DNA of 64,000 bases from Herbaspirillum sp. CF444 (GTDB taxonomy: Bacteria > Pseudomonadota > Gammaproteobacteria > Burkholderiales > Burkholderiaceae_D): the NCBI RefSeq assembly GCF_000282135.1, contig NZ_AKJW01000008.1, forward strand, positions 1 through 64,000, written 5' to 3'. The notes beneath the pieces were generated by a model, which was not told where the DNA came from, searched no databases, and saw nothing but the letters and a program-made list of their open reading frames with translations. Positions 1 through 6,968 of the stretch are shown here, piece after piece (within the stretch, counting starts at the first letter, position 1; every line of letters begins with the position of its first letter). The position numbers were made by a program, and so were the translations under genes.

Positions 1-367
1 CCAGCGGCAGCCGCAGCGACGGCGGCGCCAGCAGCAGGAAGCCGATGCTCGCCAGCCAGATCGCCAGCACCGGCAAGGCCAGCAGGATCAATCGCTGCAT
101 GCCGGGCAGGGCGCCCGGGCGCGCCAGCCGCGCGGTGATGCCCTGCGCCGACATCAGGATCGCCAGCGGAAACGCCACCTTGATCCAGAACAGCGGCGTC
201 GCCAGCAATTCCGGCATGTCGCTGCGTATGCCGTAAGCGAGCACCAGCAGCGCGGACGCGCCGAGCAGGCCGATCAGCAACGCCAGTCCCAGTCGCTTGC
301 CTAATATGTCGGGATCGCTGCGTGTTGTTCCTGTTGCAAGCATTGACACCAGGTCAGGTGTTTTCAT
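1..367 (-). CDS. nrsF: NrsF-type anti-sigma factor (DUF1109), C-terminus beyond window
   Basis: The reading frame stays open from an ATG at 367 to the window edge, so only the first 122 residues of a family of roughly 210 are seen. The protein opens with MKTPDLVSMLATG, followed by hydrophobic segments near residues 25-45, 60-80 and 94-114 and the stretch PLFWIKVAFPLA, all typical of DUF1109/NrsF. NrsF is the multi-spanning inner-membrane anti-sigma factor that holds sigma-F in Caulobacter and releases it under metal stress. A GGGA lies 6 bases before the chosen ATG; an in-frame ATG 12 bases upstream has no room for a ribosome site. The gene is divergent from bufA and has its own sigma-F-type promoter. 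No sigma gene lies between promoter and nrsF, so the partner is either downstream beyond the window or elsewhere. Confidence 0.85.
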   Translation of the reverse strand, partial: MKTPDLVSMLATGTTRSDPDILGKRLGLALLIGLLGASALLVLAYGIRSDMPELLATPLFWIKVAFPLAILMSAQGITARLARPGALPGMQRLILLALPVLAIWLASIGFLLLAPPSLRLPL

Positions 368-436
368 CAGATTTCCCATCCTCGCGTCTTTTGTCCATGG
401 GCCGCCACCGGTCCGGCAAGACGCCTTGCTTATATC

Positions 437-462
437 TTCGTTGGCGCGGCCGATCCGGTTAC
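437..462 (-). promoter_or_regulatory. sigma-F-type promoter of nrsF (GTAACC-N16-CGAA)
   Basis: Read on the minus strand, GTAACC (462-457) is followed after exactly 16 bases by CGAA (440-437), 70 bases before the nrsF ATG. This matches the motif reported for sigma-F-dependent promoters of Caulobacter crescentus. It mirrors the promoter facing bufA, so nrsF is probably under the same sigma factor. Confidence 0.75.
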
Positions 463-506
463 AGCGTTTGCAAAATAAATATTTTCAAATTTATTTTCAA
501 TTTGCT

Positions 507-532
507 GTAACCAAACGCCATGGTCCAACGAA
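507..532 (+). promoter_or_regulatory. sigma-F-type promoter of the buf operon (GTAACC-N16-CGAA)
   Basis: GTAACC at 507-512 and CGAA at 529-532 are separated by exactly 16 bases, 83 bases upstream of the bufA ATG. The 44 bases between this and the divergent promoter are very AT-rich and contain AAAATAAAT and its inverted copy ATTTATTTT, which could serve as a shared upstream element. Confidence 0.8.
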
Positions 533-615: not shown

Positions 616-894
616 ATGAACACCATCAAACTCGCAACTGCCGCTTTCACCCTCGCTGCCCTGACATCCGGTATCGCCATGGCGCAAAACGCTCCTGCCG
701 CCGCCAAGACCGCCGTCGAAAAATGCTATGGCGTTTCGCTGGCCGGCCAGAACGATTGCAAGGCCGGCGAAGGCACCACCTGCGCCGGCACCGCCAAGAT
801 GGACTATCAGGGCAATGCCTGGAAGAACGTTCCTGCCGGCACGTGCACCACCATCAAGACGCCGAAGAGCATGGGTTCCCTGAAGGCAATCTGA
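616..894 (+). CDS. bufA: bufferin precursor peptide (BufA, DUF2282)
   Basis: A 92-residue protein with a signal peptide (residues 1-23, cleavage after AMA) and a small mature part with four cysteines at 37, 48, 56 and 77 in the contexts EKCYG, NDCKA, TTCAG and GTCTT. This is the DUF2282 pattern of bufferins, exported ribosomally made peptides whose cysteines are modified by a DUF692 enzyme so that they bind copper. The start is fixed by AAGGAG at 604-609, 6 bases before the ATG; the open frame extends upstream without a ribosome site and would swallow the promoter. bufB, bufC and doxX follow in the same direction with short gaps, so this is the first gene of the operon. The modified cysteines cannot be told from sequence alone. 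Confidence 0.9.
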
Positions 895-919: not shown

Positions 920-1759
920 ATGACAGCGACACTTGGTGCCGGCCTGGGCTTGAAGCCGCAACATTTCGACGACGCGCTGCACTGTGCCGAAGCCGAAATG
1001 TGGTTCGAGGTCCATCCCGAGAACTACCTGATGGCGGGCGGTCCGCGGCTGGCATGGCTGGACGCCGTCCGCAGCCGCCATCCGGTGTCGCTGCATGGCG
1101 TGTCGCTGTCGCTGGCGGGAGCGGCTGCTCCCGACCAGCAACACCTGAACCGCCTGAAAGAACTGATACGCCGCGTCGAACCGGCGCTGGTATCCGAACA
1201 TCTGGCCTGGTCGACACTGGACGGCCGCTACTATCCCGACTTGCTGCCGGTGCCACGCACCAGCGACATCCTGTCGCGCGTGGCCGCCAATATCCAGCGC
1301 ACGCAAGAGCAATTGCAACGTCGCATCGCCATCGAGAATCCCTCGCACTACCTGCGCATGGACAATCACGACTGGAGCGAAACCGATTTCCTCGACGAGC
1401 TGGTGCGCCGCACCGGTTGCGGGCTGCTGGTCGACGTCAACAACGTCTATGTCAGCGCCCGCAACATCGGTTATGACGCGCACACCTATCTCGACAATCT
1501 GCCGGCCGAAGCGATCATGGAAATCCATCTGGCCGGGCATAGCGAGGACAACGACGGCGACGCTGCATCCTTGCTGATCGACTCGCACGACGCCCCGGTG
1601 ATCGAGCCGGTCTGGCGCTTGTACCGCCATCTGATCGAACGCATCGGCGAACGCCCGACGCTGATCGAGCGCGACGACAAGATTCCCGCTTTCGCCGAAT
1701 TGCTGACCGAACGCAACAAGGCGCAGGAGATCCTGTCCGCACAAGGAGTGCTGAAATGA
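920..1759 (+). CDS. bufB: MNIO family bufferin-modifying enzyme (BufB, DUF692)
   Basis: The 279-residue protein is a full-length DUF692 (MNIO) multinuclear iron-dependent oxidase with a TIM-barrel fold. Conserved metal-site motifs run in order: HPEN (32-35), HGVSLS (59-64), SEHLAW (92-97), IEN (138-140), DVNN (172-175), EIHLAGH (201-207), DSH (221-223) and ERDD (250-253). In bufferin systems this enzyme converts precursor cysteines to 5-thiooxazole groups in the cytoplasm before export. The gene starts 25 bases after bufA and overlaps bufC by ATGA, which indicates translational coupling. The specific chemistry is inferred from the bufA/bufC context; other DUF692 enzymes act on other peptides. 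Confidence 0.9.
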   Translation: MTATLGAGLGLKPQHFDDALHCAEAEMWFEVHPENYLMAGGPRLAWLDAVRSRHPVSLHGVSLSLAGAAAPDQQHLNRLKELIRRVEPALVSEHLAWSTLDGRYYPDLLPVPRTSDILSRVAANIQRTQEQLQRRIAIENPSHYLRMDNHDWSETDFLDELVRRTGCGLLVDVNNVYVSARNIGYDAHTYLDNLPAEAIMEIHLAGHSEDNDGDAASLLIDSHDAPVIEPVWRLYRHLIERIGERPTLIERDDKIPAFAELLTERNKAQEILSAQGVLK

Positions 1760-2523
1760 ACCATGCCTCCGACAGCTTTCAACGCGACTTCATCCGCGCC
1801 ATTTATGGCGTCGGCGATAGCCAGTCTTCGCTGGCGCAACTGACCGGCCAGCCCGGTTTCAAGGTCTATCGCAATACCGTGCTCAAGGCCAGCGTCGATG
1901 CGCTGGCGGCCAATTATCCTGCCATCGTGCGGCTGGTCGGCGAAGAATGGTTTCGCTCCGCGGCGTTGATCCATGCCTGCGCCGAGCCGCCCCAAAGCGT
2001 CTGCCTGATCGAATACGGTCGCGGTTTCGCCGATTTCCTCTCGGCGTTCGGACCGGCAGCCGAGCTGCCTTATCTGGGCGACGTTGCGCGCCTGGATCGC
2101 TTCTGGACCGAATGTCATATCGCCGCCGACGAGGCGCCGCTGGAAGCCGCCATGCTGGCCGCGCTGGGTGAAGCGGATTTGCTGCGGAGCGTCCTGCGTC
2201 CTCGCGCGGCCGTGCGTTGGCGCTGGTGCGCAAACCAGCCGGCCTATGCCATTTGGCAAGCCAATCGCGAACAACGCGAGCTCGCCGACGAGCTTGATTG
2301 GGACGGCGAGGGCGCCTTGCTGAGTCGCATCGACGGCCAGGTCGCCTGGCAGGCGGCAAGTCTCGGCATGTGCGTGTTTCTCGATGCCTGCGCCGCCGGC
2401 GAGGACTTGCAGGCGGCAACGACAAAGGCCGTCGACGCAGAACCCGGGCTGGATGTCGCCCGTTTGCTCGGCGCCTTGATTCACGCCGAAGCATTTGCTT
2501 CGCCTGTCATGCCCACACGCTGA
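1756..2523 (+). CDS. bufC: BufC-type partner protein (DUF2063)
   Basis: The 255-residue protein has the DUF2063 N-terminal domain (residues 1-95), with the family signature [20 protein letters not shown] near residues 36-55 and a less conserved C-terminal half. Proteins of this family are the usual companion of DUF692 enzymes and are thought to recognise the precursor peptide and present it to the enzyme. The ATG overlaps the bufB stop (ATGA), so the two are probably made in equal amounts. No membrane segment or signal peptide is seen, in line with a cytoplasmic role. Confidence 0.88.
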
Positions 2524-2554: not shown

Positions 2555-3043
2555 ATGTCTGCCCATCCTGCACCTGCGACCACAACGACTACCGAGGCGA
2601 AGCCTGACTCCTTCATCGGTTGGTATAACTTCGCCGCCGCGCGCGCCACGCAACTGATCGGCGATTCGCTGCTGGCGCTGGTGGCGCGGGTAGCCATCGC
2701 CGCCGTGTTCTTTCTCTCCGGCCGGACCAAGGTCACCGGCTTCCTGAGCATCAAGGACAGCACCTACACGCTGTTCGAACAGGACTACAAATTGCCGCTG
2801 GTGCCGCCGGAAATCGCCGCGCACCTGGCTGCTTATGCAGAACACTTTTTCCCGCTGCTGCTGGTGATGGGGCTGTTCACACGCTCTGCCGCGCTGGGCT
2901 TGCTGGGCATGACTGCGGTCATCGAAATCTTCGTCTACCCGGATGCCTGGCCGACGCACCTGACCTGGGCCGGTCTGCTGCTGTTCCTGGTCGGTCGCGG
3001 CGCCGGCGCCTGGTCGCTGGATCGCCTGTTCGGCATCAAGTAA
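2555..3043 (+). CDS. DoxX family membrane protein of the buf operon
   Basis: A 162-residue DoxX/DoxD-like protein with four hydrophobic segments (about 39-57, 86-106, 109-126, 133-152) after a cytoplasmic tail rich in Thr and Ala. The motif [15 protein letters not shown] is typical of the family. The ATG at 2555 has a CGGAG ribosome site 6 bases upstream and lies 31 bases after bufC. DoxX genes are a regular last member of bufferin operons; the function is unknown, with a redox role in the membrane often proposed. Two more DoxX-type genes lie in this window, at 6118 and 61835. Confidence 0.85.
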
Positions 3044-3072: not shown

Positions 3073-4731
3073 ATGTTCGCCAAACTGAAAATCCGCACCA
3101 GCCTGTTGTTCGTTCTCGGCATCTTCTCGCTCGCCTTGTGGACGGCGGTGTTCATCGCCTGGACCGATGCGCGCCAGTCGGCCGGGGCCATGAACGAACT
3201 GATCGATTTGTCGGACAAGCAGATCCAGCCGCTGCATGAAGTCGAGCGATTGTTTCAGTCCACGCTGATCAACATGGACAACGCCTACATCAACCTGGTG
3301 CGCGGCGACCAGGTCAAGGCCAACGACTACACGCGCAAGGCGTCGATGGCGCTGCAAGAAGCGAAGAAGACGTTCGAGAACTACCGCAAGGGCGACCGGT
3401 CGGCCGCGGGTCTGGCGGAACGATCGCAGCAGGTCGGCAGCGCCTACGACGCCTACACCAAGGTGCTGGAGGCGCGCGAGGTGGCGCTCTACGACGTTTC
3501 GCTCGATGCCTATGCGGCAGCCACCACCAGCGCCGAAGATGCCGACCGCGTGTTTGCTTCGACGCTGCGCACGGTCATCCGTCACGCCGAGTCGGTGCGC
3601 GATGCATTGAGCGCCGCGTCCGAGCAGCGCTATACGATTGCCGTCTATCTGGCGGGCGGCCTGTTCATCTTCTCGCTGTTGCTGGTCGGCCTGTACTGGA
3701 TGCTGTTCGACCGTGTGCTGCTGCGTCCGCTGGCAACCACCGGCATGCATTTCGATCGCATCGCCGGCGGCGACCTGAGCTCGCCGGTGGAAGGCGCTTC
3801 CCGCAATGAAATCGGCGTTTTGCTCGGGGCCCTGCAGCGCATGCAGCAAGGCCTGGTGGAGACCGTCTCGTCGATACGCAACGGCACCGAGGACGTCAAC
3901 CGCAGCGCGCGCGACATCGCCGAAGGCAACGTCGATCTGGCGGCGCGCACCGAGCAGCAAGCCTCATCGCTGGAAGAGACTGCCGCCACGCTGGAACAAC
4001 TGTCCGCCGCCGTCAAGCAGAATGCCGAAAACACCCGCCACACCAACCAGCTGGCCGCCACCGCAGCGGGCGACGCCGTCAAAGGCGGCGAACTGATGAC
4101 GCGCATTGTCGGCACCATGGGCGAAGTCTCGGTCAGCGCCGGCAAGATTTCCGAAATCGTCAGCGTGATCGACGGCATCGCATTCCAGACCAATATCCTG
4201 GCGCTCAATGCGGCCGTCGAAGCGGCGCGTGCCGGCACCCAGGGCAGGGGTTTTGCCGTGGTGGCGACGGAAGTGCGTTCGCTGGCCTTGCGCAGCGCCG
4301 AAGCGGCCAAGGAGGTCAAGGTCCTGATCGGCGAATCCGCTGCCTGCATCGATCTGGCGTCGGCCCAGGTGATCGAAACCGGCCGCGCCATGGAGCAGAT
4401 CGTGACCTCGGTCAACACCGTCATGAACACCATGAACGAAATCTCGATCGCCACGCAAGAGCAGGCAGAAGGGCTGGAGCAGGTCAGCCGCGTGGTCGTG
4501 GAGATGGACAAATCCACCCAGGAGAACGCCGCGCTGGTCGATCAGACCGCCGAGGCCGCCAATGCGCTGACACGTCAGGCCGGTAGCCTGGTGCAATCTG
4601 TTTCGGTGTTCAACATTGCCGCACAGGAAGCCGACGCAGAAACAGAGGCGCTGGCCGTGGAGGAGCATGGCGCAATGCGTCCGGCAACCGACATTACGCC
4701 ACGCAACATGCTTGGTTACGCCAGTGTTTAG
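3073..4731 (+). CDS. methyl-accepting chemotaxis protein
   Basis: A 552-residue chemoreceptor. A first membrane segment at about 10-32 and a second at about 193-214 enclose a four-helix-bundle periplasmic sensor of about 160 residues. A HAMP domain (214-266) and a cytoplasmic signalling hairpin follow, with the strongly conserved tip around residues 365-405 ([20 protein letters not shown]). The C-terminus lacks an NWETF-like tether for the methylating enzymes. It begins 29 bases after the DoxX gene in the same direction, so it may be read through from the buf promoter; no separate promoter was recognised. The ligand cannot be named from sequence. Its stop codon overlaps that of the opposing ycaQ gene by 4 bases. 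Confidence 0.93.
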
Positions 4732-6117: not shown

Positions 6118-6621
6118 GTGAAACCATTCCCGCCGCAGAACGTCGTCACTCCCGACAGGGAGGGCGCGCGTTTTGTCGTCCCCGCGCTCGGCCGCTTTTA
6201 TGCGCGCAGCGAAGCGCTCTGCTATGCACTGCTGCGCTTCGGTTACGGGGCCATCATCCTTACCCACGGCTTGCCCAAGGCGCTGGGCGTCTCGCATGGT
6301 TCCATGGCCGACCCGATGGCCGGTTCCATCAAGATGATCGGCACCGTCATGGGCCTGCCGTTCGCGCCGCAACTGGCCTTCCTCGTGATGCTGCTGGAAA
6401 CCGCCGGCGCCGCCATGCTGGCGCTCGGCTTGCTGACGCGGCCGGTCGCCTTGCTGATGACGATGGAGATGATCGCCATCAGTTACGCCATGGGACCGAC
6501 GTGGCCGTGGATCGACCGCGGCATCGAGTATCCGGTGCTGCTCGGACTTGCCGCGCTGTACTTCACGATACGCGGTGGGGGAGCCTGTTCGCTCGACGGA
6601 AAACTGAGGCGCGAAATCTGA
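6118..6621 (+). CDS. DoxX family protein
   Basis: A 167-residue DoxX protein with four membrane segments and the conserved pattern LLRFGYGAIILTHGLPKALG followed by VMLLETAGAAMLALG. The start chosen is the GTG at 6118, preceded by GAGG 5 bases upstream; the frame is open further upstream, but that part would run through the palindrome at 6005 and has no ribosome site. A YciI-type gene follows 56 bases downstream, probably in one transcript. DoxX proteins are linked to redox or thiol stress in several bacteria, but no substrate is established here. Confidence 0.82.
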   Translation: MKPFPPQNVVTPDREGARFVVPALGRFYARSEALCYALLRFGYGAIILTHGLPKALGVSHGSMADPMAGSIKMIGTVMGLPFAPQLAFLVMLLETAGAAMLALGLLTRPVALLMTMEMIAISYAMGPTWPWIDRGIEYPVLLGLAALYFTIRGGGACSLDGKLRREI

Positions 6622-6677
6622 CCGATGGAACGCAAGGCAAGCCGACAACATCACCACCTCAACCGACAAGGATGCAT

Positions 6678-6968
6678 ATGAAATTCATCAACTACGTCAC
6701 CTATACCGACGACAAGGAAAAACTCGCCGCCCATGCGTCCGACCACAGGCAATACGTCAAGAGCCTGCTCGACGCCGGCAAGCTTGTCCTCGGCGGTCCC
6801 TTTCCGGACGGCAGCGGCGGTCTGCTGATCTATGAAGTCGAAGCGTTGCCGGAAGCGCAAGCGTTGCGCGACAGGGATCCCTTTGCCGTCAGCGGCGTGT
6901 TCGTGCGCTCGGAGATCAGTCCGTGGTTGCTGCTGGCGCTGAATCCGGAACTGATGAAGCAGGATTGA
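6678..6968 (+). CDS. YciI family protein
   Basis: A 96-residue YCII-domain protein: a ferredoxin-like alpha/beta fold with the family features HASDHRQYVKSLLDAGKLVLGGP and DPFAVSGVF, including the His-Asp pair (HASDH) proposed as an active site. AAGGA at 6668-6672 lies 5 bases before the ATG at 6678, which is preferred over the ATG at 6672. It follows the DoxX gene and likely shares its transcript. YciI proteins are small enzymes of mostly unknown substrate; the family also covers muconolactone isomerase-like proteins. Confidence 0.85.
   Translation: MKFINYVTYTDDKEKLAAHASDHRQYVKSLLDAGKLVLGGPFPDGSGGLLIYEVEALPEAQALRDRDPFAVSGVFVRSEISPWLLLALNPELMKQD

What the first reader, a model, noticed from the sequence alone, without database searches (positions are those of the whole stretch)
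437..532. Two divergent, exact GTAACC-N16-CGAA promoters between nrsF and bufA
Both strands of the 248-base gap carry the identical motif with identical spacing: 462-437 toward nrsF and 507-532 toward bufA. The motif is that reported for Caulobacter sigma-F, an alphaproteobacterial system, yet this window looks betaproteobacterial. This gives a direct sequence link between the DUF1109 anti-sigma factor and the bufferin operon, and suggests one metal-responsive sigma factor controls both.
Basis: partly seen in the sequence, partly recalled or inferred. Interest (0 to 1): 0.82.

Follow-up and report, generated by a model that had tools for sequence, protein, structure and literature searches.

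The report
Paired sigma-F promoters beside bufferin operon
Two back-to-back copies of a known stress-sigma-factor promoter probably switch on a copper-binding-peptide operon and the regulator's own genes together; the arrangement is of a known type that turns out to be widespread, with an extra anti-sigma gene and a stepwise spacing that may be new.

Summary
GTAACC-N16-CGAA occurs exactly twice in the window, divergently, at 462-437 and 507-532; 0 of 100 shuffles give two. The single motif is at chance level in this genome (8 hits, reversed control 6). The divergent pair is not: 13 of 399 genomes have it, reversed control 0. A named-genome scan stopped at 118 stretches; 107 of 118 have sigF/nrsF beside the pair, 73 of 118 buf/DoxX genes.

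It is an ECF16 (SigF/NrsF) module driving a bufferin operon, a link demonstrated in Caulobacter in 2012. It is not only alphaproteobacterial: Cupriavidus metallidurans has the exact pair between rpoQ and gig. 'Metal-responsive' is plausible but the motif does not show it: elsewhere the pair faces MsrB or cytochrome b561 genes.

(2) The distance between the promoters is stepwise (about 76, 86, 96 and, more loosely, 107 bp), near whole DNA turns, in two families, which suggests that the promoters interact.

The parts
1..379 (-). nrsF1, N-terminal part only (NrsF/DUF1109 anti-sigma), cut by the contig end; by synteny it continues at the start of contig C110 (L012 3-293), followed by sigF (L012 about 460-1053) and nrsF2 (L012 1050-1691)
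   Evidence: PF06532 hits in three pieces; Pfam; contiguity seen on relative L192
437..462 (-). SigF-type promoter toward nrsF1 (-35 GTAACC 462-457, -10 CGAA 440-437)
   Evidence: exact match, 0 of 100 shuffles with two matches; conserved pair
463..506. 44-base A/T-rich (35 of 44, counted) inter-promoter segment; in the wider set an A/T tract lies 11-16 bases upstream of each GTAACC; shared UP-element-like candidate; holds a 12-base direct repeat (480-491, 492-503)
   Evidence: sequence; position profile over 107 promoter pairs; repeats
457..512 (.). near-palindrome joining the two -35 elements (arms 457-480 and 489-512)
507..532 (+). SigF-type promoter toward bufA (-35 GTAACC 507-512, -10 CGAA 529-532)
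   Evidence: conserved pair
616..894 (+). bufA: bufferin (Buf1) precursor, DUF2282, signal peptide and four Cys by eye; the only DUF2282 hit in the genome
   Evidence: Pfam 9e-25
920..1759 (+). bufB: MNIO (DUF692) enzyme; the only hit in the genome
   Evidence: Pfam 3.8e-103
1756..2523 (+). bufC: DUF2063 partner protein
   Evidence: Pfam 1.3e-19
2555..3043 (+). doxX: DoxX family membrane protein, last gene of the presumed operon
   Evidence: Pfam 5.3e-18

Best explanation
This is the control region of an ECF16 (SigF/NrsF) stress module with a bufferin output. Membrane NrsF proteins with two conserved cysteines hold SigF inactive. A thiol-reactive envelope signal, most likely copper or another soft metal, releases it. 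SigF-RNA polymerase then fires both promoters, making more SigF and NrsF (feedback that resets the system) and the BufA-BufB-BufC-DoxX proteins, which make a modified periplasmic metal-binding peptide. Here the regulator genes are nrsF1-sigF-nrsF2, with an extra anti-sigma gene in front of the sigma gene. Shown here: sequence, gene content, conservation. Inferred from named relatives: co-transcription, sigma recognition, anti-sigma action, signal, peptide function.
For: Exact pair. The sigma gene on C110 has regions 2 and 4; the complete NrsF scores 251 bits. The pair is conserved: 13 of 399 genomes of the window's order, 37 of 373 of its family, 39 of 377 of a second family outside its class, reversed control 0 in all three. 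107 of 118 named-scan loci have SigF/NrsF as the first module gene on one side, and 67 of 118 also have buf/DoxX on the other. In Caulobacter the SigF-dependent CC3254-3257 operon has the same gene order, with the motif supported by 5'RACE and lacZ fusions (PMC3511200 sections 6-8); a sigF::Tn5 mutant is copper-sensitive and sigF and nrsF are copper-induced (PMC8224329 passages). Both NrsF copies of this genome keep the two conserved Cys (126 of 126 and 124 of 126 aligned rows have them). Sister genomes show nrsF-sigF-nrsF in one piece.
Against: No expression data for this organism. In C. metallidurans, which has the exact pair, no promoter upstream of gig had been identified (a figure legend mentions one low-score start site in the region), gig rose in metal-treated rpoQ-deletion cells, which the authors ascribe to compensation, and rpoQ-rsqA depends on RpoD (PMC10304878 passages). 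In Caulobacter the sigF promoter is not exclusively SigF-dependent and sigF is not strongly autoregulated under Cr or Cd. Reports on oxidants conflict: not induced by ROS agents, listed as ROS-responsive by others. The same pair faces non-metal genes elsewhere. The C8|C110 junction is inferred from relatives, with one mismatch, by eye, in the few overlapping bases.
Confidence: 0.9

Rival explanations
1. Same sigma factor and promoters, but the natural inducer is oxidant or reactive chlorine stress (thiol oxidation of NrsF) and metals act only indirectly.
For: ECF16 systems in Brucella and, as cited there, Azospira, Bradyrhizobium and Caulobacter respond to HOCl or ROS (PMC8315932 passages); a sigF mutant of Caulobacter is impaired in stationary-phase oxidative stress (PMC8224329 passage). 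The same divergent pair faces MsrB, cytochrome b561, DUF1223 or Met-rich-protein genes in some of the 34 non-bufferin loci.
Against: The output here is a bufferin operon with the genome's only DUF2282 and MNIO hits; Caulobacter SigF-dependent genes were not induced by ROS-generating agents (PMC3511200 abstract) but are by Cu.
Confidence: 0.2
2. The bufA-side promoter is SigF-dependent, but the nrsF-side motif is largely read by another sigma factor, so there is little autoregulation.
For: The Caulobacter sigF promoter keeps activity in a sigF mutant; C. metallidurans rpoQ-rsqA depends on RpoD. One sigma-70-like match was found at 500-472 (-), where shuffles give 0.5 on average.
Against: Exact-match searching guarantees the motif itself, but unselected flanks (CT before GTAACC, the A/T tract) are conserved on the regulator side too. 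SigF overexpression raises sigF-promoter activity in Caulobacter, and sigF and nrsF are copper-induced there.
Confidence: 0.3
3. The stepwise inter-promoter spacing reflects slippage of 10-12-base A/T repeats and shared ancestry, not selection on helical phase.
For: The 12-base difference between G991 (108) and this window (96) is one extra copy of the TATTTTCAAATT-type repeat. Thinned to SigF identity below 60% (n=14) p is 0.04-0.06, below 50% (n=10) 0.05-0.10. The third cluster (101-112) is broad.
Against: A similar phase recurs in a second family with other sequences (V-test with the phase fixed in the first family: p=8e-4 at 10.5 bp, 2e-3 to 9e-3 at 11 bp). The spacers of G925 and G893 show no such repeat by eye.
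Confidence: 0.45
4. The pair is a chance occurrence.
For: Single motif at chance level in the genome.
Against: The pair is conserved beside sigF/nrsF, and the reversed control gave 0 matches in the four pair searches of whole genomes.
Confidence: 0.01

Closest known systems
Caulobacter crescentus SigF-NrsF regulon (CC3253-CC3252 and CC3254-CC3257)
   Same: Same motif and spacer length, same output gene order DUF2282-DUF692-DUF2063-DoxX, NrsF with two conserved Cys (PMC3511200, abstract and sections 6, 7, 8, 12).
   Different: Two nrsF genes bracketing sigF here; one bufferin operon in this genome, two in Caulobacter. The Caulobacter sequence itself was not fetched, so its inter-promoter distance was not measured.
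Cupriavidus metallidurans gigPABT / rpoQ-rsqA divergon
   Same: Divergent ECF sigma/anti-sigma and bufferin operon; exact promoter pair found here between them (L157 4144-4229, 86 bp; the record has no annotation, so the genes are named from HMM hits and the paper's coordinates). A later paper calls the gig products bufferins (PMC13192273 passage).
   Different: Sigma gene before a single anti-sigma gene; spacing one turn shorter; in the published passages no gig promoter had been identified.
ECF16 HOCl-type modules (Brucella BcrS-AbcS; Azospira SigF-NrsF)
   Same: ECF16 consensus (T/C)GTAAC-N17-CGAA and DUF1109 anti-sigma (PMC8315932 passages).
   Different: Output is methionine sulfoxide repair and a Met-rich protein, not bufferin.

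Membership tests
ECF16 (SigF) sigma / NrsF anti-sigma module | ECF sigma factor with regions 2 and 4 | tested here: met
   PF04542 and PF08281 over their cut-offs in a 197-aa protein on C110
ECF16 (SigF) sigma / NrsF anti-sigma module | adjacent NrsF (DUF1109) anti-sigma | tested here: met
   two NrsF genes, 251 bits for the complete one
ECF16 (SigF) sigma / NrsF anti-sigma module | two conserved Cys in NrsF | tested here: met
   present in both copies of this genome
ECF16 (SigF) sigma / NrsF anti-sigma module | six transmembrane helices in NrsF | not tested
   no topology prediction was run
ECF16 (SigF) sigma / NrsF anti-sigma module | promoter (T/C)GTAAC-N17-CGAA | tested here: met
   TGTAACC-N16-CGAA on both strands; consensus from PMC8315932
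ECF16 (SigF) sigma / NrsF anti-sigma module | sigma factor reads the promoter | not testable with these tools
   needs 5' end mapping and a sigF deletion
Bufferin (Buf1) gene cluster | DUF2282 precursor, MNIO, DUF2063, DoxX genes in a row | tested here: met
   four consecutive genes over the Pfam cut-offs
Bufferin (Buf1) gene cluster | modified, copper-binding product | not testable with these tools
   needs mass spectrometry and a metal binding assay

The most novel reading that the evidence does not exclude
The divergent SigF promoters form one helically phased unit: two SigF-RNA polymerases bound back to back on a shared A/T tract must lie in a fixed rotational relation, so the regulator and output genes are fired (or compete) as a pair. 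In the nrsF-sigF-nrsF lineage a second, promoter-proximal anti-sigma adds a second sensor or a tighter off-state.
Probability: 0.35. Interest if true: 0.65.

Novelty: new variant of a known kind. Interest (0 to 1): 0.5.

Why it matters
It gives a base-level, directly testable promoter for the gig/bufferin operon in Betaproteobacteria; for C. metallidurans the passages that I saw say that no gig promoter had been identified and no RpoQ dependence shown. It warns that the motif marks an exchangeable thiol-stress module and not metal response as such. The stepwise spacing would, if functional, be an unusual case of two ECF promoters working as one phased unit, and the double anti-sigma arrangement is a natural experiment on why a sigma factor would need two inhibitors.

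Tried and rejected
Regulon definition by the single motif: rejected, because the exact motif is at chance level in the own genome (8 against 6 reversed with N16; 26 against 23 with N15-17). Further bufferin loci under the same sigma: none, one DUF2282 and one MNIO hit only. The pair as a mark of metal response: rejected as sufficient, since 34 of 118 loci with SigF/NrsF have no buf/DoxX hit within 800 bases on the other side (in L042 and L099 buf genes lie farther off). In one search two queries (SigF, DoxX) were translated in the wrong frame; corrected, and nothing from those rows is used. Rayleigh p values are inflated by relatedness and by any single tight peak: of two control distances, CGAA to the SigF match gave p=7e-7 (n=100) and CGAA to the BufA match p=0.65 (n=68). 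I therefore rely on the smooth-null test, thinning, and the test of a phase fixed beforehand. In the second family, 32 of 39 matches were checked for module genes; five had none or only a distant BufC hit (spacings 69, 69, 69, 71, 94). Statistics are given with all 39 rows; without those five R=0.60, n=34 at 10.5 bp. Whether nrsF1 arose by duplication or transfer could not be decided (the window's own nrsF1, held in two halves, is not in that tree).

Full report
Observation. The window holds exactly two GTAACC-N16-CGAA matches, divergent, at 462-437 and 507-532; 100 shuffles average 0.04 and none has two. They lie between an NrsF (DUF1109) gene on the minus strand and bufA.

Is it more than chance? 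Taken alone, no: the genome (5.59 Mb, 125 contigs) has 8 exact matches and 6 for the reversed control; the six others lie under open frames of 182-851 codons, stop to stop. Taken as a divergent pair, yes. The pair pattern is found in 13 of 399 genomes of the order (7 of 158 genera), 6 of 398 of the phylum, 37 of 373 of the family and 39 of 377 of a second family (that of G634), each count but the last including the window's own genome, with no match of the reversed control in these searches. The second family lies outside the window's class; rows of it fall among Sphingomonas relatives in the NrsF tree, so I take it as alphaproteobacterial. Exact-match searching makes all of these lower bounds.

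What lies around it. With HMMs built from the loci themselves, 107 of 118 scan loci have SigF or NrsF as the first module gene within 800 bases on one side; 73 of 118 have buf or DoxX genes on the other, or on one side where there is no SigF/NrsF; 67 of 118 have both. Of the 107, 34 have no buf/DoxX hit within 800 bases and 6 end at a contig edge. Of the 11 without adjacent SigF/NrsF, 6 have buf genes and 5 have neither, some of them near contig edges. Record titles include Caulobacter, Brevundimonas, Sphingomonas, Novosphingobium, Devosia, Acidovorax, Variovorax, Herbaspirillum, Paraburkholderia and Luteibacter. The motif is therefore not specific to Alphaproteobacteria. C. metallidurans CH34 has the exact pair between rpoQ and the gig operon (L157 4144-4169 minus, 4204-4229 plus), where the passages that I saw report that no promoter upstream of gig had been identified, though a legend mentions one low-score start site in the region (PMC10304878). 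The record has no annotation; I name the genes from HMM hits and the paper's coordinates.

Non-bufferin outputs. The first ORFs facing the pair in the 34 loci without buf were printed. Four were scanned against Pfam: L061 cytochrome b561 (PF01292), L066 MsrB (SelR, PF01641), L041 DUF1223, and L133, a Met-rich small protein, no hit; several others look alike by eye. Brucella and, as cited there, Azospira ECF16 systems act in HOCl resistance (PMC8315932, passages). So the pair marks an exchangeable stress module. The metal reading rests on the bufferin output and on Caulobacter, where the three SigF-regulon clusters are copper-induced and a sigF::Tn5 mutant is copper-sensitive (PMC8224329, passages). 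On oxidants the reports conflict.

The regulator genes. The window starts at base 1 of contig C8, inside nrsF. PF06532 is found in three pieces: C8 5-340 (profile 1-111), C110 3-290 (109-204) and a complete second gene at C110 1077-1688. Relative L192 aligns to C8 up to the last 7 bases (L192 5760-6453, 91.6%) and to C110 from base 2 (6447-6741, 90.2%), so the two pieces are very probably one gene, nrsF1, with sigF and nrsF2 downstream. A same-genus genome has nrsF-sigF-nrsF and buf in one piece (L026). Among 28 family loci fetched, 19 begin with nrsF and 9 with sigF; in 15 of the 19 nrsF-sigF-nrsF is visible (the last gene cut by the locus end), one locus is too short, and three have a longer gap. 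For those three, longer stretches again show nrsF-sigF-nrsF (L192-L194); in L192 the gap holds a tetR gene on the opposite strand, so there nrsF1 and sigF need not share a transcript. The 11 nrsF1 rows in the tree form one clade (100/100); nrsF2 rows group with C. metallidurans rsqA. Both copies keep the two conserved cysteines; nrsF2 has a third, shared by 39 of 126 rows, that nrsF1 lacks. In Caulobacter, replacing the two conserved Cys weakens NrsF's hold on SigF (PMC3511200 abstract and discussion). Named Herbaspirillum loci (L069, L089) have the same arrangement, so the source is probably a Herbaspirillum; that is inference.

Promoter anatomy. Over 107 pairs, beyond the selected letters, conserved features are CT before GTAACC, an A/T tract at 11-16 bases upstream of it (A/T 66-83% on the regulator side, 52-80% on the output side, against 19-36% at 7-10 bases upstream and 39-66% at 18-32), and [CT][TA] after CGAA. 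The tract sits where the alpha subunit's C-terminal domain usually binds (recalled); that it is an UP element is inference.

Spacing. The total TTCG...CGAA length is not continuous. In the 118 loci (search range 82-112) it falls at 82-89, 92-98 and, more broadly, 101-112, with no case at 90-91 or 99-100; in the own family (range 67-127, 44 pairs in 37 genomes) 85-87 (10), 89 (1), 93-98 (31), 108 (2). The best-fitting period is 11-12 in the first set and 10.5-11 in the second. A smooth-null test gives p of at most 0.0004 for all 118, for 64 rows thinned at 80% SigF identity and for 37 at 70%; at 60% (n=14) p is 0.04-0.06 and at 50% (n=10) 0.05-0.10. In the second family, all 39 rows give a smooth-null p of 0.0005-0.0017 and 28 genus-thinned rows 0.003-0.009, with peaks near 76, 86 and 97; the phase fixed beforehand in the first family holds (V-test p=8e-4 at 10.5 bp; 2e-3 to 9e-3 at 11 bp). 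Off-phase cases exist: 101-104 in 7 of 118, 114 twice, 115, 120. The simplest mechanical reading is that two polymerases, or the two promoters with a shared A/T tract, must keep a fixed rotational relation; slippage of 12-base A/T repeats is a real rival, seen directly in G991.

Prior art. The core of the finding is known: in Caulobacter the sigF operon and the DUF2282-DUF692-DUF2063-DoxX operon both have this promoter, mapped and tested (PMC3511200, abstract and sections 6, 7, 8, 12; its figures were not held), and sigma and NrsF genes are reported in Buf1 clusters (PMC12452194, passages). I saw no paper on the spacing or on double nrsF operons. The searches that bear on this were made, in an open-licence library; I saw their listings and opened six papers in all, so absence from print is not established.

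Verdict. Observation right; regulatory link very likely right; 'metal-responsive' plausible but not shown; taxonomic surprise unfounded. Not met in what I read: the exact pair at C. metallidurans gig, the nrsF1-sigF-nrsF2 arrangement, and the stepwise spacing.

Noticed in passing
window 1; L012 1-293: The window's left edge is a contig end inside nrsF1; by synteny the gene and the sigma gene continue on contig C110.
   Followed up: yes
L192 6756-7340: In a close relative a tetR gene on the opposite strand sits between nrsF1 and sigF; in the window's genome this interval is only about 150 bases.
   Followed up: partly
L160, L199, L203, L212 and similar (second family): The same promoter pair lies between two different bufA genes, one leading bufB-bufC and the other doxX-sigF.
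   Followed up: no
L041, L061, L066, L133 (Pfam-scanned); L071, L079, L139 by eye: The same promoter pair faces DUF1223, cytochrome b561, MsrB or Met-rich small protein genes instead of bufferin genes.
   Followed up: partly
G1032, G1073: Two same-genus genomes carry three and four copies of the promoter pair on different contigs: several SigF modules, or mixed assemblies.
   Followed up: no
L012 about 310-460: The sigF frame is open well upstream of ATG 460; ATG 361 has a GGAGGAG-like ribosome site by eye, so the start of SigF is uncertain.
   Followed up: no
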